Below the pieces are notes generated by a model, which did no database searches, was not told the DNA's origin, and saw nothing but the letters and a program-made list of their open reading frames with translations. A DNA stretch of 35,688 bases, taken from the NCBI GenBank assembly GCA_017616855.1, contig JAFZXI010000016.1, positions 1-35,688 of the forward strand, written 5' to 3'. This DNA is from Clostridia bacterium. GTDB lineage: Bacteria > Bacillota > Clostridia > Oscillospirales > RGIG8002. The translations under genes and the position numbers were made by a program. Every line of letters starts with the position of its first letter. The stretch's first letter is position 1. Below are positions 1,348 to 24,982 of this stretch, one piece after another.

Positions 1348-1376
1348 TTGCCATTTCCGGAAAAAAGGTTTATAAT
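1348..1376 (+). promoter_or_regulatory. Sigma-A-type promoter of the transport locus
   Basis: TTGCCA at 1348-1353 and a consensus TATAAT at 1371-1376 are separated by exactly 17 bases. Transcription would begin near 1383, leaving a leader of about 148 bases before the TTG start at 1531. The leader contains the palindrome at 1395-1407 and a GC hairpin (GGCGG 1470-1474 with CCGCC 1480-1484). Confidence 0.8.
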
Positions 1377-1394
1377 CTACCATAGATATATTAT

Positions 1395-1407
1395 AGGATA
1401 GTATCCT
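1395..1407. promoter_or_regulatory. Possible operator palindrome just downstream of the start site
   Basis: AGGATA-G-TATCCT is a perfect 13-base palindrome centred at 1401, about 18 bases downstream of the predicted transcription start. Repressor sites of sugar operons often sit there. No regulator gene is adjacent, so the cognate protein is unknown. Confidence 0.4.
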
Positions 1408-1530
1408 CGTCTCCGTATCGAATCGTGTCCGGCAGGTCCGCGCGGGAAGCGGAAACGGACGCGGCGGAGGGCGGAAAAACCGCCTTCGCGGGAGCGGGAT
1501 ACAAACCCTTACTGACGGGAGGCATACACT

Positions 1531-4500
1531 TTGAAGACCAAGATCCTAAAGCGGATATTATCGGCGCTGCTGCTCGCGGCGATGGTGATGTCGCTCTGCG
1601 CCTGCAACCCCACGGAGGGCACGGGCACGGGGAGCGGTTCCGCCGGTGAATCCGCAACGGAGCGCGAGGCAAGCGCCGCGGCTGCAAGCAACAGCAGCAA
1701 CGACCTGCGAATGGTCGGCACCGCACGCACGACCTACGACGATTACCTCAAAGCTCATCCCGAATCCAAGCTCGTCTACGCCGATCCCATCGCCGCGGAC
1801 CTTTCGGCTGCCGAGTTCACCATGGATATCGATTTCGAGCCCGAGGACGACGAGGCGATAACCGGCAAGACGACCGAGCCGGCCGATCTTGACGCGGATG
1901 CAGACGCCGAAGCCGACGCCGAAGCCGACGCCGAAGCCGACGCCGAAGCGGAAACCGAAGCGCCCGCCGAGCCGGAAACGACCGAGCCGGAGCCCGACGC
2001 CGAGCCCGAACCCGACGCCGGCGCGTACACCGCCGAAGACTTCGAGGTCGTCGACAGCTACGAGGGCAAGACCGGCACCATCCTGGTGTGGAAAAACGCC
2101 GAGGGCCGCCTTGACGTCAAGTTCAACGTCGAAAAGGCGGGGCGCTACGCCGTCTGGTTCGACTACTTCGCGCTGTCCGACGAGGCGCGCAACATAGAGC
2201 TCGAACTTTACGTCAACGGCAAAAAGACCTTCTCCCAGGCGGAGCGTATCAATATGAGCCGCCTCTGGCATAACGAAAACGACTCCATCGAGCAGGACGT
2301 CCGCGGCAACGACCTGAACCCGTCACAGGTCGCCTACAACGCGTGGATCCACGGTCCCGTCCGCGATAACGAAGGACTTTACGACGCCCCCTTCACCTTC
2401 TGCTTCAACGAAGGCGAGAACGTGATAACGATAATCGGCGCGAGAGCGCAGTTCGCGATAGCGGGCATCGAGCTTTACAACACCCCGGCTTACAAGACCT
2501 ACGAGGAGTACCGCGGCGGAAACCTCATAACCGAAAACGGCTACTACGAGCTGATCCAGGGCGAAACGCCGACCTATACCTGCGATCCGGCGCTCCACCC
2601 GATTTACGACCGCTCGAGCGTCAATACCATCCCCGCCGACCCGATCCTGCTGAAGCGCAACACGATGGGCGGAGGCAACTGGGCGTCGCAGGGCCAGTAC
2701 GCGGTATACACCTTCAACGTCCCCGCAGAGGGCTGGTACAAGATCGCGGTACGTTACCGTCAGAACGTCGCCCGCGGTCTGAGAACCTACCGCCGTCTCT
2801 ACGTGAACGGCGAGGTACCCTTCGCGGAGGCCGATTGCCTCACGTTTGAATATTCCGACTACTGGCAGAAGACAGTGCTCGGCGAGATCGACAACGACGG
2901 CGAGCCCTACCTCTTCCACCTGAAATCCGGCAAGAACGAGATCCGCATCGAAGCGATAACCGGCCCGACCGGCGTCATCATCGCGGAGCTCGACGACATG
3001 GTCTACGAGTTCAACTACATATACAGAAAGATCATCATGATCACCGGACTCGATCCGGACCCCTACCGCGACTATCACCTCGAATCCGATATCCCGACGC
3101 TGCTTCCGACCTTCAAACGCCTGAAGGAGCAGTGCGAGAGCATCAAGGAACGCCTGATAGAGATACGCGGCGGCTCGTCTTCGTCCGAGGTCGCGTCGCT
3201 GACAAACATGAGCGTCCAGCTCAAGAGCTTGCTGAAGGACCCCGAAACGATTCCCGTCAGACTCTCGATGTTCAAGGATAACATCTCCGCGCTCGCGGCG
3301 CTCTCCGTCAAGCTGAAGGAGCAGCCGCTCGAGCTCGACTACATCACCGCGACGGCGAAGGACGTCGAGGAGTTCGTCGAGGACAAGGGCTTCTTCAAGA
3401 ACCTCAGCTACAAGATCAAGGCGTACTTCGCCACCTATATCGAGGACTATAACTCCGTCGGCTCCAACGCCGAAGGCGAGGACGTCCTCAGAGTCTGGGT
3501 CAACCTCGGCCGCGACCAGGCGAACCTCATCAAGGAAATGAGCGACTCCGACTTCACCTCCCAGACGGGAATCAGAGTCAAGGTCAGTCTCGTCCAGCAG
3601 AACCTGATTCAGGCGAACATAGCGAACGACGGACCTGACGTAGTTCTCTTCGTCGGCGGCGGCGACGTCGTCAACCTGTCCGCCCGTGAAGCGTTGGTTG
3701 ATATGTCGCAGTTCACCGGTTGGGACCTGACGAACAGCACCGGCGGCGCCTATCACGTCAACGACTACGAAACGGTCATGACGCGCTTCTCCAAATACGC
3801 CGGCGAGCCGTACCGTTTCACCGACTACACGGGGCATACCGGACACTATTCGATACCGATAACCGAAAACTTCAATATGCTCTTCTACCGCACCGACATC
3901 TTCGATGAGCTCGGGCTTGAGCCGCCCAAAACGTGGGACGATTTCTACAAGGTGCTGACCGTGCTGCAGAACAACAACATGCAGGTCGGTATCCCGAACG
4001 GCAGCGACAGCGCCGTCGACAGCGGAATCTTCCTTACGCTGCTGAAGCAGCACGGCTTGAGTCTTTACAGCGACGACCTCAAGAAGACCAACCTTGACAC
4101 GACCACCGCGCTGGCGGCGTTCAAGCAGTGGACCGGCTTCTATTCGCAGTACAGTATGCCGCAGCGCTACGACCTGTACACGCGTTTCAGAACGGGCGAA
4201 ATGCCGATGGGCTTCGCGGGCTACACCTTCGTCAACCAGCTCAACTACGCGGCGCCCGAACTCAAGGGCCTCTGGGAAATGACCACCATTCCCGGCACGG
4301 TGCAGGAAGACGGCAGCGTCAATAACATCGTTTCCGGCGGCGGCGCCGGCGCGATAATCTACAAGCGCGCGGTCAAGCGCGGCGTCGAAAAAGCGGCGTG
4401 GGCGTATATCGACTGGTTCACCAGCGAGGACGCGCAGGCGAAATACGGCTTCGATATCGAGACGTTGCTCGGAGCCGCCGGCCGTTACGACACCGCGAAC

Positions 4501-4752
4501 ATCTCCGCCGCGGAGCGCCTCCCCTGGAGCGCAAAGGAGTGGAAGGTGCTGAAAGCGCAGTGGGATAACATGTTCATCAATCCCGTTGTCATCGGCGACT
4601 ACTACTACTCGAGAAACATTACCTTCGCGTTCAGAAACGTCGTTATCTACTCCAAGAACCCGAGAGAAATGCTCCTCAGCTACAACAAGGAGATAAACGC
4701 GGAGATAACGACCAAACGCAAAGAGTTTAACCTGGAGGTGGATGAAAAATGA
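1531..4752 (+). CDS. Large lipoprotein with a C-terminal extracellular solute-binding domain and N-terminal beta-sandwich modules
   Basis: At 1073 residues this is more than twice the usual size of a family 1 sugar-binding protein. The start is a TTG preceded by GGGAGG with 8-base spacing. A lipoprotein signal peptide ends in the lipobox LCAC, with Cys25 as anchor. Residues 120-165 are an acidic Asp/Ala/Glu/Pro spacer built on a DAEA tandem repeat. Two beta-sandwich-like modules follow (about 167-330 and 340-497), each with a phrase such as AGRYAVWFDY or EGWYKIAVRYRQN typical of carbohydrate-binding or jelly-roll domains. A helical region spans about 500-645. The binding domain covers about 650-1065, with GPDVVLFVGGG, NMLFYRTDIFDELGLEPPK and TWDDFYKVL. 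It should hold the ligand at the outer membrane face and deliver it to the permeases encoded directly downstream. The substrate is unknown. Its stop overlaps the next start by four bases. Confidence 0.85.
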   Translation: MKTKILKRILSALLLAAMVMSLCACNPTEGTGTGSGSAGESATEREASAAAASNSSNDLRMVGTARTTYDDYLKAHPESKLVYADPIAADLSAAEFTMDIDFEPEDDEAITGKTTEPADLDADADAEADAEADAEADAEAETEAPAEPETTEPEPDAEPEPDAGAYTAEDFEVVDSYEGKTGTILVWKNAEGRLDVKFNVEKAGRYAVWFDYFALSDEARNIELELYVNGKKTFSQAERINMSRLWHNENDSIEQDVRGNDLNPSQVAYNAWIHGPVRDNEGLYDAPFTFCFNEGENVITIIGARAQFAIAGIELYNTPAYKTYEEYRGGNLITENGYYELIQGETPTYTCDPALHPIYDRSSVNTIPADPILLKRNTMGGGNWASQGQYAVYTFNVPAEGWYKIAVRYRQNVARGLRTYRRLYVNGEVPFAEADCLTFEYSDYWQKTVLGEIDNDGEPYLFHLKSGKNEIRIEAITGPTGVIIAELDDMVYEFNYIYRKIIMITGLDPDPYRDYHLESDIPTLLPTFKRLKEQCESIKERLIEIRGGSSSSEVASLTNMSVQLKSLLKDPETIPVRLSMFKDNISALAALSVKLKEQPLELDYITATAKDVEEFVEDKGFFKNLSYKIKAYFATYIEDYNSVGSNAEGEDVLRVWVNLGRDQANLIKEMSDSDFTSQTGIRVKVSLVQQNLIQANIANDGPDVVLFVGGGDVVNLSAREALVDMSQFTGWDLTNSTGGAYHVNDYETVMTRFSKYAGEPYRFTDYTGHTGHYSIPITENFNMLFYRTDIFDELGLEPPKTWDDFYKVLTVLQNNNMQVGIPNGSDSAVDSGIFLTLLKQHGLSLYSDDLKKTNLDTTTALAAFKQWTGFYSQYSMPQRYDLYTRFRTGEMPMGFAGYTFVNQLNYAAPELKGLWEMTTIPGTVQEDGSVNNIVSGGGAGAIIYKRAVKRGVEKAAWAYIDWFTSEDAQAKYGFDIETLLGAAGRYDTANISAAERLPWSAKEWKVLKAQWDNMFINPVVIGDYYYSRNITFAFRNVVIYSKNPREMLLSYNKEINAEITTKRKEFNLEVDEK
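1903..1950 (+). repeat. 12-bp tandem repeat encoding the DAEA acidic spacer
   Basis: GACGCCGAAGCC occurs four times head to tail, the last copy ending in G instead of C. It keeps frame and encodes Asp-Ala-Glu-Ala four times inside the lipoprotein spacer. The near-perfect copies suggest recent slippage, so spacer length may vary between strains. Confidence 0.9.
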
Positions 4753-5690
4753 CGACTGAAGTCAAAATGCCCGTCAAGCGCAAGCTGACGCCTAAAGAAT
4801 ACGTCAAACTCCAGGGTACGCTCATCGGGCGCAACTGGGATAAGTACGTCATGCTTGCGCCGTTCTTCATTATCTTCACCATCTTCACCGTCATCCCCGT
4901 CGCCGCGGCGATTGTGCTGAGTTTCACGAACTACAACATGGTCCAGACGCCCGGCTTCGTCGGATTTGACAACTACATCCGCCTGCTGCTTTCGGATACG
5001 ATATTCCCGAAAGCGATAAAGAACACCCTCGTCTTCGCGGTCATCACCGGCCCGCTCAGCTACTTCGCCTGCCTGATGCTCGCGTGGTTCGTCAACGAGC
5101 TCGGCCCGAAGCTCCGTACGCTGATGACTCTGATGTTCTACGCGCCGAGTATCAGCGGCTCGCTGTATATGATCTGGAGCTTGATATTCTCCGGCGATAT
5201 GTACGGCTGGGCGAACGGCTTACTGATGAGCTGGGGGTTGATCGACGAACCGATACTGTGGTTGAGCGACCCGCAATACAACCTGACGATTATAATGGTC
5301 GTTCAGGTCTGGGCGAGCTTGGGCACGGGCTTCCTCGCGTTCGTCGCGGGCTTCCAGAACGTCGACACCTCACTTTATGAGGCCGGCGCCGTCGACGGCG
5401 TCAGCAACCGCTGGCAGGAGTTGCTGCATATAACCCTTCCTTCGATGGGACCGCAGCTTCTGTTCGGCGCCGTCATGCAGATCGCCTCCTCCTTCGCGGC
5501 GGGCGATATCTGCGTCGCGTTCGCCGGCAACCCGTCGACCGACTATTCGGCGGCGACGATCCTGACGCATATTTACGACGTCAGCGGACGATACGAAATG
5601 GGCTACGCCTGCGCGATATCGACCGTGTTGTTTGTGCTGATGATCTTCGCCAACGTCGGAGTACGTAAGGTACTCCAGAAATACTTGTAA
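4749..5690 (+). CDS. Sugar ABC transporter permease, MalF/UgpA-like (pair 1)
   Basis: This 313-residue integral membrane protein has a first helix at about residues 36-60 (MLAPFFIIFTIFTVIPVAA) and roughly six helices in all. The cytoplasmic EAA loop, which docks on the transporter ATPase, is clear at about residue 210: YEAGAVDGVSNRWQELLHIT. FTNYNMV followed by GFDNYIRLL after the first helix is typical of MalF-type permeases of the carbohydrate CUT1 family. Its ATG overlaps the stop of the solute-binding gene, which suggests translational coupling. It should pair with the product of the next gene. No ATPase is encoded in the locus. Confidence 0.92.
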   Translation: MTTEVKMPVKRKLTPKEYVKLQGTLIGRNWDKYVMLAPFFIIFTIFTVIPVAAAIVLSFTNYNMVQTPGFVGFDNYIRLLLSDTIFPKAIKNTLVFAVITGPLSYFACLMLAWFVNELGPKLRTLMTLMFYAPSISGSLYMIWSLIFSGDMYGWANGLLMSWGLIDEPILWLSDPQYNLTIIMVVQVWASLGTGFLAFVAGFQNVDTSLYEAGAVDGVSNRWQELLHITLPSMGPQLLFGAVMQIASSFAAGDICVAFAGNPSTDYSAATILTHIYDVSGRYEMGYACAISTVLFVLMIFANVGVRKVLQKYL

Positions 5691-5708
5691 GGGGGGCGAA
5701 GCTGATTT

Positions 5709-6692
5709 ATGAAGAAAAAACTCGCTTCCCAGGTCACCGCAACGGGTGAAAAACGTTTGCTCACCGCCGAGGACTTTATGTCCAAGGAGGAGATGAAGGC
5801 GCGCAAGAAGGCGATAAAGGCGAGAAACCGCCGGGTCCGCGCAAAGAGAGCGGGCCGCCACGCGCGCAGCCGCGCGGGCAACATCGCGATCTTCGTGCTG
5901 CTGCTTGCGTTCGCCGCGTTCTTTATGCTCCCCTTCGTCTTCACGCTGATGCAGGCGTTCAAGCCCGCCGAGGAGCTGTTCCGTTATCCGCCGCGGCTTA
6001 TCCCGAGAAACCCGACGATCGATAACTTCATAGTCCTCGGACAGCTCACCAATTCGCTGTGGGTCCCGCTTTCCAGATACATAACCAACAGCGTCATGGT
6101 CTCCGTCACGGGTACTTTGCTGCACGTTATCGTCGCCTCGATGGGCGCTTTCGTGCTCGCGAAGTATAAGTTCCCGGGCTCCAAGACCTTCTTCACCATC
6201 ATAGTTTATTCACTGCTTTTCACCGGCTCCGTCACCGCGATGCCGTCGTTCATAGTAATGAATAAGCTGAACTTGATTAACACACCGTTGGCGATCATCA
6301 TACCTGCCATCGGCGGCTCCTTCGGACTCTTCCTTATGAAGCAGTTCATGGAGCAGATACATCCGTCCATTATCGAATCGGCGACGATCGACGGCGCGGG
6401 GACGTTCAAGATCTTCACGAGGATCGTAATGCCCTCCGTCAAGCCGGCGTGGCTGACGCTGATAATCTTCACCTTCCAGGGCCTCTGGAACAACTCGGGC
6501 GGAACGTATATCTACGATGAAGCGTGGAAGATGCTCCCGACGGTGCTCTCCCAGATAACCGCGTCCGGTATCGCGAGATCCGGCGCCGCGGCGGCCGCCT
6601 CGGTCATAATGATAATCCCTCCGCTGCTCGTCTTTATCCTGACGCAGTCGAACGTTATCGAGACCATGGCGTATTCGGGCATAAAGGAGTAA
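5709..6692 (+). CDS. Sugar ABC transporter permease, MalG/UgpE-like (pair 1)
   Basis: This 327-residue protein has a strongly basic cytoplasmic N-terminus (about residues 1-55, many Lys and Arg) that is longer than in usual MalG-type permeases. Six predicted helices follow. The EAA loop lies at about residue 222: IESATIDGAGTFKIFTRIV. FKPAEELFRYPPRLIPRNPT after the first helix is the standard MalG-type segment. It forms the second half of the first permease pair. GGGGGG lies 12 bases before the ATG, a rather long spacing. Confidence 0.92.
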   Translation: MKKKLASQVTATGEKRLLTAEDFMSKEEMKARKKAIKARNRRVRAKRAGRHARSRAGNIAIFVLLLAFAAFFMLPFVFTLMQAFKPAEELFRYPPRLIPRNPTIDNFIVLGQLTNSLWVPLSRYITNSVMVSVTGTLLHVIVASMGAFVLAKYKFPGSKTFFTIIVYSLLFTGSVTAMPSFIVMNKLNLINTPLAIIIPAIGGSFGLFLMKQFMEQIHPSIIESATIDGAGTFKIFTRIVMPSVKPAWLTLIIFTFQGLWNNSGGTYIYDEAWKMLPTVLSQITASGIARSGAAAAASVIMIIPPLLVFILTQSNVIETMAYSGIKE

Positions 6693-6696
6693 CGGC

Positions 6697-8892
6697 ATGA
6701 AGAAAAGCAGCAGAATGATGATAAGGTTCGTAACGCTGTCGCTCGTATTCGTGCTCGCGTTCTCCGCGTATGCGATGCCCGCCTCCGCAGCGGTTTCCTA
6801 CGACACCTACACCTACGATACCTACAGCACCGCCCGCGTTTCGCCGGACGGCTACCAGGTCACGAAGGTCATCAACGGCGTCGACATCGGCGTCGGCAAT
6901 ATGAGCAGCCCGAAGGACATCTTCGTGCGCAACGACCACATCTATATCCTCGATTCCGGCAACGGCAGGATAATCGTGACCGATTTCGACTTCAACCTCG
7001 TCAAGACGATAGATCATTTCTACGAGGCGGACGGCACGGAGTATACGCTCCACGATCCGAACGGCTTCTTCATCGACACCGATGAAAAGCATATCTACAT
7101 CGCGGATACGAATAACGAAACGCTGACCGTCTATGACGACGAGGGCAACATCGTATTCAATCCCGACGGAACGAAGCAGGAGATCACCGTCGGCAACAAG
7201 GTCATCTGCGTCGACGAGGCGGGCGTGATCGTTTCCGAGTTCAACAAGCCGGAAAGCGACATCTTCCGCCAGGATATCAAGATGAAGCCCACCGCGGTCC
7301 TGAAGGACGGGCTCGGCCAGATATACATACTGTCCGAGGGCTTCTACTACGGCGCGATAGTCTACCGCGAGGACGGGACCTTCGTCGGTTTCTACGGCGC
7401 GAACAAGGTCGCCGTCACCGCGAGTCTGCTGATCGAGCGCGCCTGGCGTAAGATCATGACGAAGAAGGCGACGAGCTACACCGCCAACTACGTCCCGACC
7501 GCGTACAACGGCTTCGACGTCGACGACGAAAACTTCATCTACACCATCTCCGATAACGGAGCCAACGCCATCAAGAAGCTGAACGCCGTCGGCGATAACG
7601 TCCTCCAGACCGAGACCGTCCGCGTCGGCAGAAACAAGGCGGTATTCGGCGACCTCGAACAGTCCTGGGACCTCGGCGTTTCGAAGGAGACGCGCTTCAA
7701 GGACATCGACATTTCGCCCAACGGCTTCATCAACGTCATCGACTACACCCGCGGCAGACTCTTCCAGTACGATCAGGACGGCGAACTGCTCTTCATCTTC
7801 AGCGGTTTGGGCGATCAGTCCGGTACCTCCAGCCAGCCGATCGCCATCGAGAGTTTGCCGGACGACAGCATCCTCGTGCTCGATATGCACAAGGGCTACG
7901 TCACCAAGTGGTCCCCGACTGAATACGGCGAACTCGTTCACAAGGGCACGCTGCTCTTCAACGAGGGCAAATACGCCGAGGCGAAAGAGATCTGGCAGGA
8001 CGTCATTCTCCGCAACTCCAACTTCGAGCTCGCCTATACCGGTATCGGCAAGGCGTACTACGAAGAGGAGCAGTACGAGGAAGCGCTCGAGTACCTCAAG
8101 CTCGGGTTCGACCGCGAGACCTATTCGCAGGCGTATAAGTATTACCGCGCCGACCTGATCCGCAAAAACTTCGTTTGGGTCATCGTCGGTCTGGTGGTGC
8201 TGATCGTCCTGCTCTCGCAGATAGGGCGCTTCAAGCGCTGGTTCAACCGCAAGCGCGGCAAGCCCGAGAACTATAAGGACATCTTCGGTCCGTTCTACAT
8301 CGCCCGCCACCCAATCGACGGCTTTGAGGACCTGCGTTTCCAGTGGCGCAACAGGCAGATATATTATTCTATAGGAATACTTTTCCTGTTCTTCATCTCC
8401 CGCGTCATCGAGCGCCAGTCCACCGGATTCATACTGAACACGAACAAGCCGGAGGACCTGAATATCGGCATGGTCCTGCTGCAGACGGTTGTCATCGCGC
8501 TGCTGTTCGTGGCGTCCAACTGGGCGGTCACGACCTTCACCAACGGCGAAGGCAGTCTCCGCAAGATATTCTACGGCACCTGCTATTCGCTCCTGCCTTA
8601 CAGCGTTTCGATCATAATCAAGGCGCTCGCGAGCAACTTCATCACCTACGATGAGACCGCGCTGCTGAACGTCATCACCTATATCGGAACGCTCTGGAGC
8701 ATCTGGCTGCTGATGAACATGGTCAAGGGCGTCCACCAGTTCCGAATGCTCGGCTCTGTGCTGACGATAGTGTGCACCGTCGCGTTCATGGTCGTCGTGG
8801 CGGTCCTCGTCGCGCTGTCGATCAGTCTTATCCAGCAGTTCTACGTTTTCCTGCTCTCGGTCTACAACGAGATAGCTTACAGGATATCTTAA
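6697..8892 (+). CDS. NHL beta-propeller, TPR and Yip1-domain membrane protein
   Basis: This 731-residue protein has four parts. A signal peptide (hydrophobic SLVFVLAFSAYAMPASAA) ends near residue 30. About residues 45-400 form repeated blades of the NHL type, with phrases such as PKDIFVRNDHIYILDSGNGR and KHIYIADTNNETLTVYDDEG. About 409-475 is a TPR pair (FNEGKYAEAKEIW, YEEEQYEEALEYLKLGF). A helix at about 491-510 is followed by a basic loop (RFKRWFNRKRGK) and a multi-helix Yip1-type domain from about 532 to the end. The propeller and TPR should face outside and the Yip1 part sits in the membrane. It could be a scaffold or sensor for the transport complex, but no function is proven. AAGGAG lies 7 bases before the ATG, four bases after the permease stop. 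Confidence 0.8.
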   Translation: MKKSSRMMIRFVTLSLVFVLAFSAYAMPASAAVSYDTYTYDTYSTARVSPDGYQVTKVINGVDIGVGNMSSPKDIFVRNDHIYILDSGNGRIIVTDFDFNLVKTIDHFYEADGTEYTLHDPNGFFIDTDEKHIYIADTNNETLTVYDDEGNIVFNPDGTKQEITVGNKVICVDEAGVIVSEFNKPESDIFRQDIKMKPTAVLKDGLGQIYILSEGFYYGAIVYREDGTFVGFYGANKVAVTASLLIERAWRKIMTKKATSYTANYVPTAYNGFDVDDENFIYTISDNGANAIKKLNAVGDNVLQTETVRVGRNKAVFGDLEQSWDLGVSKETRFKDIDISPNGFINVIDYTRGRLFQYDQDGELLFIFSGLGDQSGTSSQPIAIESLPDDSILVLDMHKGYVTKWSPTEYGELVHKGTLLFNEGKYAEAKEIWQDVILRNSNFELAYTGIGKAYYEEEQYEEALEYLKLGFDRETYSQAYKYYRADLIRKNFVWVIVGLVVLIVLLSQIGRFKRWFNRKRGKPENYKDIFGPFYIARHPIDGFEDLRFQWRNRQIYYSIGILFLFFISRVIERQSTGFILNTNKPEDLNIGMVLLQTVVIALLFVASNWAVTTFTNGEGSLRKIFYGTCYSLLPYSVSIIIKALASNFITYDETALLNVITYIGTLWSIWLLMNMVKGVHQFRMLGSVLTIVCTVAFMVVVAVLVALSISLIQQFYVFLLSVYNEIAYRIS

Positions 8893-8911
8893 AGGAAGGG
8901 GGAGCAGATAT

Positions 8912-11389
8912 ATGAAATTCGGAAAGAAAAAACAGCCCGAACAGACGGAAGAAGTCGAGTTCGATAAGGCCTCGCTCGTGCTGACCAAGGACGAGACGAA
9001 GTGGGGCAGAACCAAAAAATGGCTCAAGCCCGTGCTTATCGTCGCGATAATTCTGTTCATTCTCTGGGAGCTTTTCGCATCGCTCGTGCTTCCCGTTCTG
9101 GGGCGCAGGGACATCATTTCGCTTCCCAAGCGCAAGGTCGAAGCGACCGACTTCACTCCGCTCGCCGGCGTAAGTTTGCCCGCGGGAGTTCCGGAGTATA
9201 TGGTCGTAGCGGCGAAGAAGGGCGACCTTACCCTCTGCGTCTGCGCCGAGGGCGGCGCCGACCAGTACGGTAACCGCGGCGAGTTCTGCGTCGTCAAGGG
9301 CGACGGCGAGCAGATATGGTTCTCCAACCCGCAGGACAGAAACAGCGAAGCGGAGGAAGCCACCGGCAAGTTCAGGTGGGAGATGTATTCCCAGCTGCTC
9401 ATCACGACCTACGATAACACGACAAGCACCGCCGAGGGTTATAACTCCTACTGGCACGCATCAAGCGACCGCGCGGATAACGCCGACTGCTTCTCGATAC
9501 AGAGCATCGAGGACGGCTTCGTCTGCAAATACACCTTCTCCACCCCGAACGTGACCGTTCCGCTTTACGTCCAGCTGACCGACACCGGCTTCAAGGCGTT
9601 CACGCTCGAGAATCAGATAAAGGAGAAGACGAAGAAGGACGGCACAAAGCCGATAGTCGTCAGCAACGTCGTCGTCCTGCCGTACTTCAACTCCGGCTCC
9701 GTTGAGGACGAGGGCTATATGCTCGTTCCGGACGGCAGCGGCGCGATAATCGAGTTCAACAACGGCAAGAACGAAGGGCTCGTTTCCAACGTCGCGCATT
9801 ACTCCGCCGCCGTTTACGGCAATGACACCGCCCTGCGCTACGACTACCGTTCGTCCGGCATTTACATTCCGGCGCTGCCCGTCTTCGGCGTGAAGAACAA
9901 CGACACCTCCTTCGTGGCGGTGATAACCGAAGGCGACTCCGCGGCGACGGTGGTTTCCTACACCTCCGGCTCCAAGAACCTGCAGAACCAGGTCTACGCC
10001 AACTTCGAGCGTTACACCCACGGCGCCGTCACGATAGGCGAGCGCGGCGACTGGACCGCCCGCGAGGTCGAGAAGTACTACACGAGAGGCGCGCAGTACT
10101 CCATCGCGGAGGTCAACTACCTGCTGCTCGACAAGGACGCCGGCTACGTCGAAATGGCGGCGGCGGTCCGCAAGTACATGATCGATAACGCGCTGCTCGT
10201 CGATCGCATGCAGGACAGCGTATCCGATATGCCGATCTTCATGAACTTCATCGGCGGCCAGTATAAGAAGGAGAGCGTGATGGGTATCCCCGTCAATCGC
10301 CTCAAGGTCTTCACGAGCGTCGATAACATCAACGAGATACTCGACGATTTCGACGGCGAGGGCATAAAGAATGTCGTCGCGACCTACGCCGGCTACAACA
10401 CGACGGATATCAAGAGCGGCAAGTTCGTCACGGGCATAAAGATACCGTCCGGACTCGGCTCAGTCAAGAAGCTGAAGGACCTCTACTCGCGTCTGAACGG
10501 CAAGCTCTACCTGTGCTACAACCCGATAAACCTGAACTCCAACGGCAGCGGGCTCACCAAGAACTCCGACACCGCCAAAGGCCTCAGCGGCAGTCCCGTC
10601 GCGCTTTACACCTACTCCGTCGCGACCGGCTACGCCGGCGCCTACAGCCGCGGAGCCAGCGCGCTCTCGCCGATCAAGTTCGAGGAGCTCATCACCCGCT
10701 ACGTCGAGAACTCCAACGATACCGGCACGAACTTCGGTATCTACATGAATAACGAGCAGACGCACTACTCGAATTTCTCCCGCACCGGCTTCATCTCCAG
10801 AGAGGCGTACAGCATCTACCAGGAGAACATGTTCACGAAGGCGACGGAAGAAAACTCCGTTATGACGAAGTTCCCGACCTACTATCAGCTTAAGTACGTC
10901 GATTACGCCACCGAGGTCCCGACGGCCTCCTCTGCGTATGACATGACGGACTACAGCGTGCCTTTCTATCAGATGGTCGTCAGCGGCAGCGTTACCTACA
11001 CCTCACCCGCGCTGAACTTCGAGGGCGATATCCACGACGCGCTGATGCGCACGATGGAAACGGGCAGCGTGCTGTATTACACCTTCATTTATAAGGATCC
11101 GTACGAGCTTAAGGATACCTGGTACGAGTTCCTTTACGGCGCGAGCTACGAGAACGGATTTGAGAGCGCCGTCTCCGCTTACAGAGAGCTGACCAAGGTC
11201 TACGAAAAGCTCGGGACCAACGTCCTGCGCGGCCATGAGCGCCTCGCCGAAGGCGTTACCGTCAGCACCTTTGAAAGCGGAAAGAAGATTATCTTCAACT
11301 ACACGGAGCGTGAATACGTCACCGAGCAGGGCGTCACGGTACCTGCCGACAGTTACGTTCTCGTATCGGAGGAGGGAAGCCAGTTATGA
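8912..11389 (+). CDS. Membrane-anchored DUF5696-type protein
   Basis: This 825-residue protein has a short basic and acidic cytoplasmic tail, one transmembrane helix at about residues 38-60 (VLIVAIILFILWELFASLVL) and a very large extracellular part. It resembles the DUF5696 proteins encoded beside CUT1-type permeases and Yip1 proteins in Firmicutes; that match is from memory of the family, not a search. Segments such as GYMLVPDGSGAIIEFNNG in the first half and FVTGIKIPSGLGSVKKLKDL in the second would fit a beta-sandwich followed by a TIM-barrel-like region, as in glycoside hydrolases. No recognised hydrolase catalytic motif was identified. It could trim or present the ligand before uptake. 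GGGGGAG precedes the ATG, and the stop overlaps the next start by four bases. Confidence 0.72.
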   Translation: MKFGKKKQPEQTEEVEFDKASLVLTKDETKWGRTKKWLKPVLIVAIILFILWELFASLVLPVLGRRDIISLPKRKVEATDFTPLAGVSLPAGVPEYMVVAAKKGDLTLCVCAEGGADQYGNRGEFCVVKGDGEQIWFSNPQDRNSEAEEATGKFRWEMYSQLLITTYDNTTSTAEGYNSYWHASSDRADNADCFSIQSIEDGFVCKYTFSTPNVTVPLYVQLTDTGFKAFTLENQIKEKTKKDGTKPIVVSNVVVLPYFNSGSVEDEGYMLVPDGSGAIIEFNNGKNEGLVSNVAHYSAAVYGNDTALRYDYRSSGIYIPALPVFGVKNNDTSFVAVITEGDSAATVVSYTSGSKNLQNQVYANFERYTHGAVTIGERGDWTAREVEKYYTRGAQYSIAEVNYLLLDKDAGYVEMAAAVRKYMIDNALLVDRMQDSVSDMPIFMNFIGGQYKKESVMGIPVNRLKVFTSVDNINEILDDFDGEGIKNVVATYAGYNTTDIKSGKFVTGIKIPSGLGSVKKLKDLYSRLNGKLYLCYNPINLNSNGSGLTKNSDTAKGLSGSPVALYTYSVATGYAGAYSRGASALSPIKFEELITRYVENSNDTGTNFGIYMNNEQTHYSNFSRTGFISREAYSIYQENMFTKATEENSVMTKFPTYYQLKYVDYATEVPTASSAYDMTDYSVPFYQMVVSGSVTYTSPALNFEGDIHDALMRTMETGSVLYYTFIYKDPYELKDTWYEFLYGASYENGFESAVSAYRELTKVYEKLGTNVLRGHERLAEGVTVSTFESGKKIIFNYTEREYVTEQGVTVPADSYVLVSEEGSQL

Positions 11390-12564
11390 TTTTCAACGAA
11401 AACACCCCTCATGATGAAAACGCCGAAGAAATGATATCCGAAGCCGTTGAAGAAACGGAGGCCGTCGAAGCGTCCGCCGAGGAAGCCGCCGCGGAAGCGG
11501 AAGAAGCGATAGCGGAAGCGGAGGCCGAGGCCGCCGAAACAGAGGCGGAAGCGGAGATCATCGCCGCCGAAGCGGAAGCCGAGGCGGAAGAGGCGGCGGA
11601 AGGCATAACCGTTCTTGAACCGGCTTACGCCGGCATGGACGGCGCTTCGCGCAGCCCGCTTCGCCGCAGGCACAAGCTTTCTTACGAGCGCAAGAAGGGG
11701 CTTTACGGCTACGGCTTCATCGCCATCTGGCTCGTCGGCGTGCTGACCTTCTTCATCCGCCCGCTGATAGGCGTTTTCGAGTTCGCCTTCTGCGATATCA
11801 ACATCAATCAGCAGGTCGGCGGCTACACTCTGAGCTGGAACAACTTCGAGTGGATCAAATACGCCTTCCAGACCGACCCGTCCTTCCTCAGAAGCATGGT
11901 GACGTCCTTCCTGAGCATGTTCTACTCGGTGCCGGGCATAGTCATCTTCAGCTTGACCATCGCGGTCATACTGAATCAGAAGTTCCGCGGCAGAACCTTC
12001 GCGAGAGCGGTCTTCTTCCTGCCCGTCATCGTCACCAGCGGCGTCGTCATCTCGATAATCCAGGGCGACTCGATGTCGACGGTCATTCTGAGCGGCTCGA
12101 AGGGCGGCTCGATGGTTCAGGCGTTCGGACTCAGCAACTTCCTGTATTCGCTGAATCTGCCCTCCGACGTCGTCAACTTCATATCGAACTTCACCAACCA
12201 GATGTTCAACTTCGCCTGGAAGTCCGGCGTGCAGATACTCCTGTTCATAGCCGCGCTGCAAACGATTTCGCCGGACCTATACGAAGCGTCCTCGATTGAG
12301 GGCGCGACGGCGTGGGAGGACTTCTGGAAGATAACGATCCCGATGATTTCGCCCATGATCCTGCTGGCCTCGGTCTATACGATAGTCGACTCCTTCACCG
12401 ACTACTCCAGCAGCACCATGACCTACATCACCGACCAGGTCAAGAATAACGGCCGTATCGAATACGGCTCGGTCCTCGCGATAATCTATTCGCTGCTGGC
12501 GCTCGCCGTCATCGGAATAGTTTACGTGATAATCGACCGCCTGGTCTTCTATTCGGTGGACTAA
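11386..12564 (+). CDS. Sugar ABC transporter permease, MalF-like, with acidic N-terminal extension (pair 2)
   Basis: This 392-residue protein begins with an unusual extension: about residues 8-85 are almost only Glu and Ala, with a few Thr, Val and Ile, likely a highly acidic helix in the cytoplasm. The permease core starts at about residue 105 (GLYGYGFIAIWLVGVLTFF). The EAA loop is at about 299: YEASSIEGATAWEDFWKIT. Length without the extension is normal for a MalF-type permease. Its ATG overlaps the stop of the DUF5696 gene in TTATGA, a coupling arrangement, and it should pair with the next gene product. The extension has the same acidic character as the spacer of the solute-binding lipoprotein, on the opposite side of the membrane. 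Confidence 0.92.
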   Translation: MIFNENTPHDENAEEMISEAVEETEAVEASAEEAAAEAEEAIAEAEAEAAETEAEAEIIAAEAEAEAEEAAEGITVLEPAYAGMDGASRSPLRRRHKLSYERKKGLYGYGFIAIWLVGVLTFFIRPLIGVFEFAFCDININQQVGGYTLSWNNFEWIKYAFQTDPSFLRSMVTSFLSMFYSVPGIVIFSLTIAVILNQKFRGRTFARAVFFLPVIVTSGVVISIIQGDSMSTVILSGSKGGSMVQAFGLSNFLYSLNLPSDVVNFISNFTNQMFNFAWKSGVQILLFIAALQTISPDLYEASSIEGATAWEDFWKITIPMISPMILLASVYTIVDSFTDYSSSTMTYITDQVKNNGRIEYGSVLAIIYSLLALAVIGIVYVIIDRLVFYSVD

Positions 12565-12576
12565 GGGGGTGCGGAT

Positions 12577-13599
12577 ATGGATTTGAAAAAGATTACCGGA
12601 TTCCCCGGAAAAGTGAAGGACTACGTCAGGGAAAAGCACGAAAAGAACCCCTACCTCGCCAAGAAGGCGACAAGCAAGGCCGCCCACATCGCGTGGACGA
12701 TATTCCGCACGCTGTTGCTCATCGGTCTGAGCTTCATCATCATCTACCCCGTCATCTACATGTTCTCGATGGGCTTCCGCGTTTCCGAGGAGGTCATGGA
12801 CCCCGCGGTCGTCTGGATCCCCAGAACGCTGACGCTCGATAACTTCAAGATGACGATAGACCTGATGAAGTATTGGGACGCGCTCAAGCAGACGGTGCTG
12901 TTCAGTATCCTCAGCTCGCTGCTCGCGGTCGCCTCCTGCGCGATAACCGGCTACGGTTTCGCCCGCTTCAAGTTCAAGGGCAAGAAGTTCCTGTTCGTGC
13001 TGGTTCTGCTGATGGTCATCATTCCGTCGCAGACGACGATAATCCCGCAGTTCATACAGTTCAGGTACTTCGACTTCTTCGGCATCGGCAAGATCGTCCA
13101 GCTCTTCTCCGGAAAGCTTTGGTCGACTAACATTCTCGATACCGGCTGGTCGCTCTACCTGCCCGCAATCTTCGCCAACGGCATACGCGCGGGCATAATG
13201 ATCTATATCTTCCGCCAGTTCTTCCGCGGACTGCCGAAGGAGCTCGAGGACGCGGCGTATATCGACGGCTGCGGACCGATAAGGACGTTTATCCAGATAA
13301 TGATCCCGCTGTCCTCGGCGGCGTTCATCACCGTCTTCCTGTTCTCGTTCGTCTGGTACTGGAACGACTACTACGTGTCCGGCATGTTCTTCTCGAACAT
13401 AGGCACCGTATCCGTCCGACTGTCCGGACTGCGAAGTCTGCTCAGCATGAGCCAGGCGAGCGTCAGCTTCGACCCGTACTCGATAATCACCTATATGCAG
13501 GCGGGCTGCTTGCTGACTATCGCGCCGCCGCTGATCGTTTACATCATCTTCCAGCGGTTCTTCACGCAGAGCATCGAGAAGACCGGCATCGTCGGCTGA
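12577..13599 (+). CDS. Sugar ABC transporter permease, MalG-like (pair 2)
   Basis: This 340-residue protein has a basic N-terminus, a first helix near residues 46-68 (TLLLIGLSFIIIYPVIYMFS) and the MalG-type segment GFRVSEEVMDPAVVWIPRTL. The EAA loop is at about residue 222: LEDAAYIDGCGPIRTFIQIM. It lies 12 bases after its partner, with GGGGGTG before the ATG. It completes a second CUT1-type pair in a locus that has only one solute-binding protein. Confidence 0.92.
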   Translation: MDLKKITGFPGKVKDYVREKHEKNPYLAKKATSKAAHIAWTIFRTLLLIGLSFIIIYPVIYMFSMGFRVSEEVMDPAVVWIPRTLTLDNFKMTIDLMKYWDALKQTVLFSILSSLLAVASCAITGYGFARFKFKGKKFLFVLVLLMVIIPSQTTIIPQFIQFRYFDFFGIGKIVQLFSGKLWSTNILDTGWSLYLPAIFANGIRAGIMIYIFRQFFRGLPKELEDAAYIDGCGPIRTFIQIMIPLSSAAFITVFLFSFVWYWNDYYVSGMFFSNIGTVSVRLSGLRSLLSMSQASVSFDPYSIITYMQAGCLLTIAPPLIVYIIFQRFFTQSIEKTGIVG

Positions 13600-13606
13600 T
13601 ACCGAT

Positions 13607-15925
13607 ATGAAGATAACGGAAAAGATAAGGAATAAGTTTTCACAAGGCTTCGGGCCCGCGTGGGCGGGCTCGAAGCTTCTTTTCTTGCCCGTTATCGCGC
13701 TCGCGCTGATAGTCGCGCTGCTCGTCGTGCTGATGGTGATGGGGAAGAAAGCCCCCTATCAGTTCGACTCCGCGAGCTACAGCGAGCACCGATACAACTA
13801 CGGTTGGTCCGAGTTCTCGCAGGACGACGTTTCCGAATCAAGCAGCGATTCCGGCTCGAACGGCGAGGAAACGGACGAGGAATACTTCGCCCGCATTTCG
13901 CAGCTTCTGAAGGACTCCGTCGCCTGCAATATCGCGACGGAAAACTACTCCGAAACGTCGGCGAAGAACATAAAATCGAGCTGCTTCTACAAGCTCGTCT
14001 ACGGCGCCGACGACATGGCGATACGCGTCGCGCCGGACATTACCGACGCGCGTTACACGCGCACCTCGGACGGCTTCAACACCGTCACGACGCCCGATAT
14101 GACGCTCTACCGCGAGGAGCGGCGGGACTCGAACTCGCAGGAGTTCCTGCTGACTCCGGCGGCGGAGGGCGGTTATTATATCATCTCGAAATCCTCCGGC
14201 AGAATGCTCGCCGAGGTCGGCGGCTACCCGATGCTGCGCGACGCGGACCTCTCCCCGAACAAGCGCTGGGACGTCAGAAAAGCGGAGAGCGGACGCTACG
14301 TCATAACCTCGCTTTCGGACGGCGGCGTGCTGAATATCTACCGCGGCTCGCTCGCGCTCGAGAAGGAAGCGGATATGCTCGACGACGCCTGGTTCATCTA
14401 CGAGATCGACGCGGCGCCCTGGCAGAGCGTATTCGTCGATAACTTCGAGCCGGGCTACATCTCCGCGATGTGGACGCGCAAGGGGAACGACCTGACGACC
14501 GACGGGAGCTGGGTCTTCGACGGCGGCAGGATAGAGATAAAAGCGAAGCTGAAGGAAGGCGCGAAAGCGTACATGACCGCGCTGACCGCTACCGGCGAGG
14601 AAGCCCGCGTCGACATCTTCGACGCCGACCTCGCGGGCGGAACTCTCCGCTGCGGCGTCTCCTTCATGGACGGGCGCAAGACTGTCAAGCACGGGCAGAT
14701 CGGTATCGGCGCGGGACTTTCCGACTGGCACGAATACGCGGTCGAGTGGGATTCCGAGCAGGTGCGTTTCTATTTCGACGGCGTGATGTACTCCGTCTTC
14801 AACGTGACGACGGACGCGGCGCGCGCGTCCTTCAACGGCACACTGATGACGCTTTCGATAGAGGGTTTCGCGCCCCCGTATTCCGAGAATATCGACTGTG
14901 TCAAGTTCCGCAAGCGCAGGGGAGAGACCCTCTCCGCCGCCGGCGGCGGAACGCCGCTCGAGCCGTTCTTTACCGCTTCCGCGGCGGGTGAGTGCCACTG
15001 CGTGACCGCGATCAACGGCGGCTTCGCCGTCGCGGTCGAAAACGGAGTGGAGTTCTATTCCGAAAAGGGCGTCAAATACAAGATGTCGGTCGCCGGACTT
15101 GACGGCGCCGTGACCTCGCTGATAACGTCGCGGGACGGAAAGACGCTTCTCGTGCTCTGCCGCGGCTCGAATAACGCCTACGTCGTCGACTGCGCTTCCG
15201 GCGACGTGCTGACGCTTTCCGGCCATACCGACAGCGTAACCTGCGGCGCGCTCGCGGAGTCCGGCGTCTGCGTGACAGGCGCCCGCGACGGAACCATACG
15301 CGTATGGAGCGCCGGCAGCGGAGAGCTGCGCGGCGTGATAAACGCCGAATCGACCCCGCGTTCAGCGGCGATACTGTCGGTGGGCGAACGCTTCGCCGTC
15401 GGCTTCAACGACGGCTACGTCCGCGTTTACAACACGACCTCGCGCAAGATGTACACCTACTTCAACGCGCATGAAAGCGCCGTTACAGCTGTCGTATTCT
15501 GCGGCAACGATAAGCTCGCGACGGGCGACGCCTCCGGCAAGCTGATGCTCTGGGACCTCGGCGTGAACATCAGATATTACACCTCCGCCCACTGCCTGAG
15601 CGCGATAAACGACCTCGCCGTTTACTACGGCGGCCTCGTCTCCGCGGGAGGCGACGGCGCCCTCCGCCTGTACACGACGGAGAAGCCCGCGGAGATAACC
15701 GCGATACGAGCGCTTCACGGCGCCTCGGTCTGCGCGGTTGACTTCGTCGGCGGCGTGCTGAGCGTCGGCTACGACGGCAAGGCGTTCTACTGCGACTCCG
15801 GGCTGAACGTGAAATACGAGCTGAAAGGGCTTTCCGGCTTCGCCGCCGGCTGCGCGCTTTCCTCGGACGGCAAGACGGCTATCGTCTGCTCCGAAAGCGG
15901 ACAGCTGTGTCTGTATAATCTGTAA
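13607..15925 (+). CDS. Membrane-anchored protein: ricin-like lectin, GH16-like non-catalytic domain and WD40 propeller
   Basis: This 772-residue protein has a transmembrane helix at about residues 24-46, so nearly all of it is outside the cell. About 165-270 looks like a ricin-type beta-trefoil (GGYYIISKSSGRMLAEVGG, then NKRWDVRKAESGRYVITS). About 272-438 has the shape of a GH16/LamG sandwich, with GGRIEIKAKL and the late strand WHEYAVEWDSEQVRFYFDG. The GH16 catalytic motif, normally ExDxxE, here reads as RVDIFD, so both catalytic glutamates are replaced. About 450-772 carries WD40 repeats, for example LSGHTDSVTCGAL, GTIRVWSAGSG, and SGKLMLWDLG. A binding or sensing role for a glucan-like ligand is inferred. 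No good ribosome binding site precedes the ATG. A strong terminator follows. Confidence 0.78.
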   Translation: MKITEKIRNKFSQGFGPAWAGSKLLFLPVIALALIVALLVVLMVMGKKAPYQFDSASYSEHRYNYGWSEFSQDDVSESSSDSGSNGEETDEEYFARISQLLKDSVACNIATENYSETSAKNIKSSCFYKLVYGADDMAIRVAPDITDARYTRTSDGFNTVTTPDMTLYREERRDSNSQEFLLTPAAEGGYYIISKSSGRMLAEVGGYPMLRDADLSPNKRWDVRKAESGRYVITSLSDGGVLNIYRGSLALEKEADMLDDAWFIYEIDAAPWQSVFVDNFEPGYISAMWTRKGNDLTTDGSWVFDGGRIEIKAKLKEGAKAYMTALTATGEEARVDIFDADLAGGTLRCGVSFMDGRKTVKHGQIGIGAGLSDWHEYAVEWDSEQVRFYFDGVMYSVFNVTTDAARASFNGTLMTLSIEGFAPPYSENIDCVKFRKRRGETLSAAGGGTPLEPFFTASAAGECHCVTAINGGFAVAVENGVEFYSEKGVKYKMSVAGLDGAVTSLITSRDGKTLLVLCRGSNNAYVVDCASGDVLTLSGHTDSVTCGALAESGVCVTGARDGTIRVWSAGSGELRGVINAESTPRSAAILSVGERFAVGFNDGYVRVYNTTSRKMYTYFNAHESAVTAVVFCGNDKLATGDASGKLMLWDLGVNIRYYTSAHCLSAINDLAVYYGGLVSAGGDGALRLYTTEKPAEITAIRALHGASVCAVDFVGGVLSVGYDGKAFYCDSGLNVKYELKGLSGFAAGCALSSDGKTAIVCSESGQLCLYNL

Positions 15926-15933
15926 AAAACGGT

Positions 15934-15966
15934 AAATACGGCCGCGCTTTTTACGCGGCCGTATTT
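15934..15966 (+). terminator. Intrinsic terminator of the transport locus
   Basis: AAATACGGCCGCG (15934-15946) pairs over 13 bases with CGCGGCCGTATTT (15954-15966) around a 7-base loop, and the stem runs into five T residues (15964-15968). It begins nine bases after the last stop codon and closes the unit that starts at 1348. Confidence 0.92.
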
Positions 15967-15971
15967 TTCAC

Positions 15972-16000
15972 TTGACAAAACAGCATATATATAGTATTAT
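15972..16000 (+). promoter_or_regulatory. Sigma-A-type promoter of the CNNM/CBS gene
   Basis: A consensus TTGACA (15972-15977) and TATTAT (15995-16000) are separated by exactly 17 bases, placed directly after the terminator of the upstream locus. Transcription would start near 16007, leaving a leader of about 70 bases. Confidence 0.85.
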
Positions 16001-24976: not shown

Positions 24977-24982
24977 CCCGAA

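What the first reader, a model, noticed from the sequence alone, without database searches (positions are those of the whole stretch)
1348..15966. Eight-gene surface locus with two permease pairs, one giant binding lipoprotein and three large extracellular modular proteins, without ATPase or regulator
Seen directly: one promoter, one terminator, gaps of at most 19 bases and two four-base overlaps, so the eight genes form one unit. CUT1 systems normally need one pair of permeases per binding protein. Here two complete pairs (4749-6692 and 11386-13599) bracket an NHL-TPR-Yip1 protein and a DUF5696 protein, and a lectin/GH16-like/WD40 protein closes the unit. The inference is a dedicated membrane assembly that captures, senses and imports a complex glycan, with two channels sharing one receptor or with the second pair doing something other than import. 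The missing ATPase is presumably a shared MsmK-like one.
Basis: partly seen in the sequence, partly recalled or inferred. Interest (0 to 1): 0.72.

Follow-up and report, generated by a model that had tools for sequence, protein, structure and literature searches.

The report
Two-channel sugar importer with scattered receptors
This is the only sugar-type ABC permease set found in a small bacterial genome, an old seven-gene two-channel unit shared by many Clostridia and Bacilli whose second channel appears to be fed by receptor proteins encoded elsewhere in the genome, which would make one import hub serve many different glycans.

Summary
The eight genes are real. Seven form an old unit: giant binding lipoprotein, permeases A1-A2, NHL-TPR-Yip1, DUF5696, permeases B1-B2. 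Of 100 DUF5696 loci, 86 carry all eight domains on one strand and the other 14 are cut by a sequence end. Gene 8 was seen only in the genus.

'Two channels sharing one receptor' is not supported. A second binding-protein family (SBP2) flanks the unit in 35 of 100 loci and diverges with pair B rather than A. The window's genome has four SBP2 genes away from any permease, no CUT1 permease found besides the window's four, and one MsmK/UgpC-type ATPase elsewhere. A relative has one unit and 24 SBP2 matches.

Best reading: a two-channel CUT1 hub on a shared ATPase, channel B fed by interchangeable dispersed receptors. DUF5696 has the GH129 fold without an evident GH129 catalytic pair. A hairpin inside gene 8, conserved at synonymous sites, may set gene 8 apart. 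Pairing and ligands are inferred. A published C. bescii operon has a matching layout (PMC8579813, passages).

The parts
1348..1376 (+). sigma-70-type promoter TTGCCA-17-TATAAT
   Evidence: 11 of 12 matches; both hexamers kept in G002 and G003. Leader 1377-1530: no Rfam match in the window at gathering threshold.
1531..4752 (+). giant binding lipoprotein (SBP1): lipobox LCAC, acidic linker, two beta-sandwich domains (about 166-316 and 339-476), helical linker, CUT1 SBP domain 648-1067
   Evidence: Pfam SBP_bac_8 2.4e-24; AlphaFold2 mean pLDDT 84.2; 33-40% identity to 53 relatives; best structure 5ysb Z 37.0, 371 residues, 2.7 A
4749..5690 (+). permease A1
   Evidence: BPD_transp_1 8.5e-11; EAA motif intact
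5709..6692 (+). permease A2
   Evidence: BPD_transp_1 5.5e-8; EAA motif intact
6697..8892 (+). NHL propeller - TPR - membrane Yip1 protein
   Evidence: NHL 5.9e-9, Yip1 3e-13; one gene in 29 loci, two genes in 67 of the 96 loci scored for both
8912..11389 (+). DUF5696, membrane-anchored (helix 38-64) ectoprotein with GH129 fold
   Evidence: PF18952 9.4e-130; model pLDDT 86.5; Z 27.9 to DagB 8rzk/5opq, 27.2 to NagBb 5wzr
11386..12564 (+). permease B1 with an acidic, low-complexity N-terminal extension
   Evidence: BPD_transp_1 2.4e-7; EAA motif with EG for DG, G 100/100
12577..13599 (+). permease B2
   Evidence: BPD_transp_1 6.5e-13; EAA motif intact
13607..15925 (+). gene 8: membrane anchor, ricin-type lectin, GH16-like domain without the catalytic motif, WD40 propeller
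   Evidence: Pfam; found in congeners L032 and L033, in none of the other 18 relatives' loci; RVDIFD motif
13645..13678 (+). conserved terminator/attenuator-like hairpin inside the 5' end of gene 8
   Evidence: MFE -30.3 kcal/mol for 13635-13690, z -4.6, 0 of 200 shuffles as low; 21 successive degenerate codons identical in three congeners, 2 of 5000 permutations reach that run
15934..15966 (+). terminal hairpin of the unit
   Evidence: listed on the - strand by the scan; + strand T-run read by eye
15972..16000 (+). promoter of the next gene, bounding the unit
   Evidence: TTGACA-17-TATTAT, kept in both congeners

Best explanation
A two-channel CUT1 import hub. Channel A = permeases A1/A2 with the giant receptor. 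Channel B = permeases B1/B2, served by receptors of a second family (SBP2), which in this lineage have left the locus and multiplied as stand-alone genes. Both channels are driven by one shared MsmK/UgpC-type ATPase encoded elsewhere. DUF5696, a membrane-tethered GH129-fold protein that co-evolves with channel B, most likely captures, trims or presents the glycan at channel B; NHL-TPR-Yip1 is a membrane partner of unknown role (sensor or scaffold). Gene 8 is a genus-level surface lectin-like add-on, probably expressed at a different level because of the hairpin in its 5' end. Shown: gene content, conservation, genome inventory, SBP2 family membership, co-divergence, fold. Inferred: physical pairing of SBP2 with B, sharing of the ATPase, sugar import, and the roles of DUF5696, Yip1 and gene 8.
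For: All eight domains together in 86 of 100 loci, the other 14 truncated. EAA coupling motifs intact in all four permeases over 86-100 sequences each. Own genome: 11 BPD_transp_1 matches = the window's 4, 4 Opp-type (OppC_N or BPD_transp_1_N domains), a Pot pair beside PotA-type ATPase, and one weakly Ssu/Tau-like; one OB_MalK ATPase, 500.5 bits against the UgpC cut-off 432; four SBP2 genes with no permease match on their contigs. A profile made only from 40 unit-adjacent SBP2s scores the four at 158-177 bits, against at most 67 for control SBPs and 44 for giant SBPs; one SBP2 clade, support 92/88. SBP2 follows B given A (partial r 0.66) but hardly A given B (0.14); giant SBP 0.50 and 0.54; DUF5696 0.57 and 0.27; SBP2 difference above 0 in 996 of 1000 subsamples, giant SBP in 419. 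Rearranged copy in G012: SBP2-x-x-B1-B2 lies upstream of giantSBP-A1-A2-NHL-Yip1-DUF5696 (L181). 24 SBP2 matches with one unit in G023; genes near G023's SBP2s include GH20, GH78, GH32, CBM-SLH, where a MalK-type ATPase also lies on the same stretch as an SBP2 (L166). Shared MsmK in C. bescii shown by deletion in PMC8579813 (passages).
Against: Orphan SBPs are not exclusive to this unit: G005 and G029 have them without DUF5696, of another family. Orphan SBP counts alone do not separate the groups well (12 of 13 unit genomes against 2 of 5). No SBP2 among the orphans tested in G018, G020, G026 and G039. G023 has a second CUT1 system with its own ATPase (L174), which its SBP2s could also feed. 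65 of 100 loci show no SBP2 within the fetched flanks. Drafts are 75-100% complete. No substrate evidence here. Co-divergence rests on 30 loci, 22 of them Bacilli.
Confidence: 0.62

Rival explanations
1. Two ordinary, independent CUT1 transporters for related oligosaccharides, kept together for co-regulation, with an exo-acting GH129-like hydrolase between them (the C. bescii reading XloEFG and AxoFGE).
For: The C. bescii locus is described as two CUT1 systems with a gene labelled GH129, in a xylan regulon and up on xylan (PMC8579813 passages). Neighbouring GHs are diverse: GH38, GH43, GH32, GH10, GH26. SBP2 pairs with B by co-divergence.
Against: Independent transporters should separate; none of 86 untruncated loci lacks a part. 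Yip1 and DUF5696 are always present there. SBP2, the one dispensable part, leaves while B stays.
Confidence: 0.25
2. One receptor (giant SBP) feeding both channels.
For: Only one SBP in the window; giant SBP divergence follows A and B about equally (partial r 0.54 and 0.50).
Against: SBP2 beside the unit in 35 of 100 loci, four SBP2 genes in this genome, SBP2 follows B.
Confidence: 0.07
3. Not primarily nutrient import: a surface glycan sensing or remodelling machine that uses ABC permeases for force or signalling.
For: Very conserved giant receptor and A pair (window to others: A1 median 51.5%, A2 47.6%; giant SBP 33-40%), no GH in the window's unit with an intact known catalytic motif, NHL-TPR-Yip1, and GDPD genes next to some units.
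Against: CUT1 SBP folds, glycoside hydrolase neighbours, xylan induction of the C. bescii operon.
Confidence: 0.06

Closest known systems
Caldicellulosiruptor bescii xylan degradation locus, xloEFG-X-GH129-axoFGE (Athe_0174-Athe_0185), PMC8579813 (passages seen)
   Same: SBP-permease-permease-X-'GH129'-permease-permease-SBP matches the unit plus SBP2 downstream, as in Caldicoprobacter oshimai L060; shared MsmK
   Different: No C. bescii sequence was available here, so homology is inferred from layout. The passages treat it as two transporters; X is unnamed. In the window SBP2 is away from the locus and no GH genes follow it in the operon.
MsmK/MsmX-type shared-ATPase CUT1 systems (S. pneumoniae, B. 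subtilis, C. bescii; PMC8579813 passages)
   Same: SBP + two permeases without an ATPase; one OB_MalK ATPase elsewhere
   Different: Two permease pairs, a giant CBM-like receptor, Yip1 and DUF5696 as fixed parts, many receptors for one unit
[quoted passage not shown]
   Same: Several substrate-binding proteins serve one permease
   Different: Opp family and peptides; three receptors, against 24 SBP2 matches in one genome here
GH129 and GH129-like glycosidases NagBb (5wzr) and DagB (5opq, 8rzk; PMC5698469 passages)
   Same: Fold over 572-583 residues, Z 27-28
   Different: 10-15% identity in the structure matches; PF11308 not matched; GH129 catalytic pair not evident; tethered, in a transporter operon
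Lin1841 beta-1,2-glucooligosaccharide-binding protein (5ysb)
   Same: Closest solved SBP to the giant receptor's SBP domain, Z 37.0, 24% identity
   Different: A plain SBP without the N-terminal 640 residues; ligand not transferable at this identity

Membership tests
CUT1 carbohydrate ABC importer | family 1/8 solute-binding protein | tested here: met
   SBP_bac_8 2.4e-24, SBP_bac_1 3.8e-21; CUT1 SBP fold
CUT1 carbohydrate ABC importer | two BPD_transp_1 permeases with EAA coupling motif | tested here: met
   Met twice: pairs A and B
CUT1 carbohydrate ABC importer | MalK/UgpC/MsmK-type ATPase | tested here: met
   Not in the locus; one OB_MalK ATPase found in the genome, C107, 500.5 bits against cut-off 432. 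Interaction not tested.
CUT1 carbohydrate ABC importer | transports a carbohydrate | not testable with these tools
   Only context: GH neighbours in relatives
Glycoside hydrolase family 129 | fold: beta-sandwich + TIM barrel + C-terminal sandwich | tested here: met
   Z 26.0-27.9 for the GH129 and GH129-like entries, next entry 18.0
Glycoside hydrolase family 129 | Pfam PF11308 | tested here: not met
   The only Pfam match of P0005 at E <= 1 is DUF5696
Glycoside hydrolase family 129 | catalytic Asp nucleophile (NagBb D435, DagB D486) and acid/base Glu | tested here: inconclusive
   hhalign Prob 97, 14% identity: the Asp is printed against 603 with a gap to 612, the Glu against 654; acids there in at most 12 of 69 and 7 of 21 rows, in about half of the 69 rows at 613 and 653
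C. bescii XDL-type locus | sequence homology of each component | not tested
   No Caldicellulosiruptor sequence obtained; only layout compared

The most novel reading that the evidence does not exclude
The seven proteins form one obligate four-permease machine, and channel B is a universal docking hub: a Gram-positive cell adds new glycan specificities by scattering SBP2 receptor genes, up to about two dozen in one genome, instead of acquiring new transporters. DUF5696 would be a GH129-derived protein serving as the fixed glycan-handling part of that hub.
Probability: 0.28. Interest if true: 0.82.

Novelty: new variant of a known kind. Interest (0 to 1): 0.6.

Why it matters
If right, a gut-type bacterium with a 1.8-Mb genome routes its CUT1 sugar import through one unit, so that unit is a single point of control. 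Dispersed receptors would explain orphan sugar-binding proteins in Clostridia, and any prediction of substrates from gene neighbourhood (PUL-style) would miss them. It also gives two unexplained bacterial families, DUF5696 and Yip1, a fixed and testable setting. The full-text searches for DUF5696, Yip1 with ABC/SBP/Clostridium terms, Yip1 with xylan and solute-binding and orphan solute-binding with permease and carbohydrate found no paper on this in the library searched.

Tried and rejected
Viral contigs: a scan with P0005 gave 26 pattern hits, none a relative by tblastn. Rfam: no match in the window at gathering threshold. DUF5696 as a plain GH129 enzyme: weakened. My notebook first placed the nucleophile beside residues 610-611; the printed alignment puts it against 603 with a gap, and the report follows the printed alignment. 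Asp621 looked catalytic at first (66 of 69 in A5), but is D in only 11 of 21 in A1 and N in the window, so no claim is made. The acids near-invariant in both alignments are D274 (20 of 21, 69 of 69) and D305 (18 of 21, 69 of 69); E716 is 20 of 21 but 38 of 69. GH16-like domain as an enzyme: rejected on its motif.

Orphan SBP presence as a proof of partnership: rejected as not decisive (12 of 13 against 2 of 5 genomes). A further 18 genomes searched for PF00528 could not be tabulated, because the list of matches was cut. G024 counts as lacking an orphan, but A7 finds one and it scores 134 bits. One G021 orphan (59 bits) lies below the best control (67 bits) and is not counted as SBP2. L203 proved to lie beside other CUT1 permeases and is not an orphan. 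The MAG/record titled Bacteroides (L073) carries the unit and may be misbinned.

Rows dropped: 14 truncated loci are told apart from the 86. L049 and L052 are one contig, so 99 distinct loci. Of the 80 named loci, the search kept the best 80 of 548 relatives, and 20 more came from 19 relatives plus a second chosen set, all selected by DUF5696; the survey cannot show double permease pairs that lack DUF5696. In one search three weak SBP hits (20-25 bits) were left out. In one search, 8 of 38 loci lacked a called component and were dropped. 18 of the 35 SBP2-flanked loci were in the profile that found them. The permutation tests overall correlation only; the A-versus-B contrast rests on the subsampling. 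A reading of an ATPase C-terminus next to a unit in G022 (L184:18687-19001) is by eye only. In the own genome ATPases were sought only by OB_MalK, and the second Pot permease was placed by adjacency.
Full report
Anatomy. The window is the whole of contig C80 of a draft genome of 1,805,569 bases, 97% complete. Eight + strand ORFs run from 1531 to 15925 with gaps of at most 19 bases and two 4-base overlaps. The promoter at 1348-1376 and the next one at 15972-16000 are kept in two congeners.

A seven-gene unit. Relatives were searched with PF18952: 23 of 40 genomes match. Stretches around 20 of these matches, and 80 named loci out of 548 relatives found by a profile of five DUF5696 proteins, were scored in six frames. 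Of the 100 loci, 84 have all eight domains in the order SBP-A1-A2-NHL-Yip1-DUF5696-B1-B2 on one strand, 2 more have all eight with the NHL and Yip1 positions read the other way round (a fused gene in L131; L037 has them in one gene), and 14 are cut by a sequence end with the remaining order kept. One contig is present twice (L049 = L052). The named loci are Ruminococcus, Ruminiclostridium and other Clostridia, Caldicoprobacter, Paenibacillus, Cohnella, Lederbergia, Gracilibacillus and Bacillus. NHL-TPR and Yip1 are one gene in 29 loci and two genes in 67. One copy outside this set, L181 in G012, is rearranged: SBP2-x-x-B1-B2 precedes giantSBP-A1-A2-NHL-Yip1-DUF5696. Gene 8 (lectin, GH16-like, WD40) was found in 2 of 20 relatives' loci, both congeners.

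Conservation. The giant receptor is 33-40% identical between the window and 53 relatives, with 48 invariant columns; A1 and A2 have median identities of 51.5% and 47.6%, B1 and B2 36.9% and 42.8%; DUF5696 is 22-27% identical. So the giant receptor and pair A look tied to a constant task, and DUF5696 and pair B to a more variable one. All four permeases keep the EAA motif: its glycine in 86 of 86 (A1), 89 of 89 (A2), 100 of 100 (B1) and 96 of 97 (B2, one gap) sequences. Both pairs can thus be expected to engage an ATPase.

The second receptor. Upstream of the giant receptor 21 of 46 examined genes, and downstream of B2 7 of 49, are SBP_bac_8 proteins. A profile search places such an SBP2 beside the unit in 35 of 100 loci at 119 bits or more, other CUT1 SBPs scoring 59 or less; 18 of the 35 were in the profile. 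Two loci outside that set also carry one on the stretch (L182, L183). In a tree of 86 rows the SBP2s form one clade (92/88, not a starred branch) without the giant receptors and the control SBPs, some of which are long branches.

Own genome. Eleven BPD_transp_1 matches: four in the window, four Opp-type by Pfam, two in a Pot cluster with PotD- and PotA-type proteins, and one weakly Ssu/Tau-like. Six SBP_bac_8 matches: Pot, the window, and four on contigs C25, C54 and C79 (two) with no permease match on those contigs. The four are 52-71% identical to each other by the alignment's first row and nest in the SBP2 clade. A profile from 40 unit-adjacent SBP2s, none from this genome or G023, gives them 158-177 bits against at most 67 for control SBPs, 44 for giant SBPs and no match for PotD. 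Their best solved relative is the arabino-oligosaccharide-binding protein 6rjy (E 3.5e-19). One OB_MalK ATPase (C107) passes the UgpC cut-off. So the window's four permeases are the only CUT1-type ones found, with five candidate receptors and one candidate ATPase.

Relatives. With the SBP2 alignment A7 at E <= 1e-20, congeners G001, G002 and G003 have 3, 4 and 4 matches, G012 4, G032 3, G024 1 and G023 24; 8 of 40 genomes match. In G012 the four SBP2s lie on the contigs of four of its six units, roughly 8-17 kb away. G023 has one DUF5696 unit. Of 12 further unit genomes whose orphan candidates were scored, 8 have at least one at 94 bits or more (G011, G013, G021, G022, G024, G030, G032, G035) and 4 do not (G018, G020, G026, G039). 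Genes beside SBP2s in G023 include GH20, GH78, GH32, CBM4_9-SLH, GDPD and Gfo/Idh/MocA proteins, and a MalK-type ATPase lies on one of these stretches (ten genes chosen by me). Against exclusivity: G005 and G029 lack PF18952 but have orphan SBPs of another family, and G023 has a second CUT1 system with its own ATPase.

Co-divergence. In 30 loci with SBP2 beside the unit and every component called, SBP2 distances correlate with B given A at 0.66 and with A given B at 0.14; the giant receptor at 0.50 and 0.54; DUF5696 at 0.57 and 0.27. The difference is above zero for SBP2 in 996 of 1000 subsamples, for the giant receptor in 419, for DUF5696 in 1000; with 23 dereplicated loci it is 0.52, -0.02 and 0.28. 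This is the main evidence that SBP2 belongs to channel B and that DUF5696 stands nearer to B. 22 of the 30 loci are Bacilli.

DUF5696. The model (pLDDT 86.5) has a membrane helix at 38-64 and then the GH129 fold: Z 27.9 to DagB and 27.2 to NagBb, next entry 18.0; the profile also finds these chains by sequence. PMC5698469 (passages) names DagB Asp486, equal to NagBb Asp435, among its catalytic residues and says that NagBb's second catalytic residue is not kept in DagB. Against two clostridial GH129 proteins the Asp is printed opposite residue 603 with a gap up to 612, and the Glu of GTE opposite 654 (which residues are catalytic in these two is inferred from the literature by motif). Acids at those positions occur in at most 12 of 69 and 7 of 21 rows; at 613 and 653 about half of the 69 rows have one. 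So hydrolysis is not excluded, but the GH129 pair is not evident.

Giant receptor. SBP domain 648-1067, best 5ysb (Lin1841, beta-1,2-glucooligosaccharides), Z 37.0, 24% identity. A GH94 protein lies at 32486-34822 in the window. Together these hint at a beta-glucoside ligand, no more.

Internal hairpin. 13645-13678 is the top-ranked terminator-like site of the scan. In three congeners, codons 9-32 of gene 8 hold a run of 21 degenerate codons identical in all three, while 282 of 522 such codons are identical over the whole gene; 2 of 5000 permutations reach that run. The RNA folds at -30.3 kcal/mol, z -4.6. It was found in no other locus fetched apart from the window's and the congeners' own copies. 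I read it as an attenuator between the core unit and gene 8, or a former unit terminator now inside the coding region; expression data are lacking.

What is known. PMC8579813 (passages) lists xloEFG-X-GH129-axoFGE in the C. bescii xylan degradation locus, describes two CUT1 transporters there, and shows by deletion that MsmK is shared. The layout fits the unit plus SBP2 downstream, as found by sequence in Caldicoprobacter oshimai (L060). Sequence identity with C. bescii was not tested. The wide conservation, the fixed DUF5696 and Yip1, and the scattered SBP2s were not found in the papers searched.

Verdict. An ordinary transporter class in an unusual, strongly conserved form. The eight-gene observation holds with one exception (the internal hairpin), the shared-receptor inference does not, and the shared-ATPase inference is supported by the inventory.

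Noticed in passing
window 32486-34822 (+): GH94-type glycoside phosphorylase (PF17167 4.5e-81) on the same contig, which fits intracellular phosphorolysis of an imported beta-linked disaccharide.
   Followed up: partly
L126:1022-1969, L065:1196-2152, L090:1899-2840 and others: In 12 of 46 loci examined the gene upstream of the giant receptor is an ABC_tran ATPase; the three scanned singly show no OB_MalK domain. Not the MsmK expected; role unknown.
   Followed up: partly
L081:14410-16242, with like genes after B2 in two other examined loci: GDPD with GPDPase membrane domain directly after the unit (3 of 49 downstream genes).
   Followed up: no
L178:8592-10490, L179:2975-4857 (G005, G029): Genomes without DUF5696 but with one CUT1 permease pair and several orphan SBPs of another family: scattered receptors may be more general.
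   Followed up: partly
L181:13021-14550 and L181:14552-17992: Two proteins of 509 and 1146 aa between SBP2 and B1B2 in a rearranged G012 unit, without a Pfam match at 1e-5.
   Followed up: no
window 24140-26664 (+): Two ABC_tran ATPases and a CbiQ protein in a row: an ECF-type transporter core; unrelated to the unit.
   Followed up: no
window 27388-28593 (+): DUF5711 protein (PF18975) of unknown function between tRNA pseudouridine synthase and colicin V-type genes.
   Followed up: no
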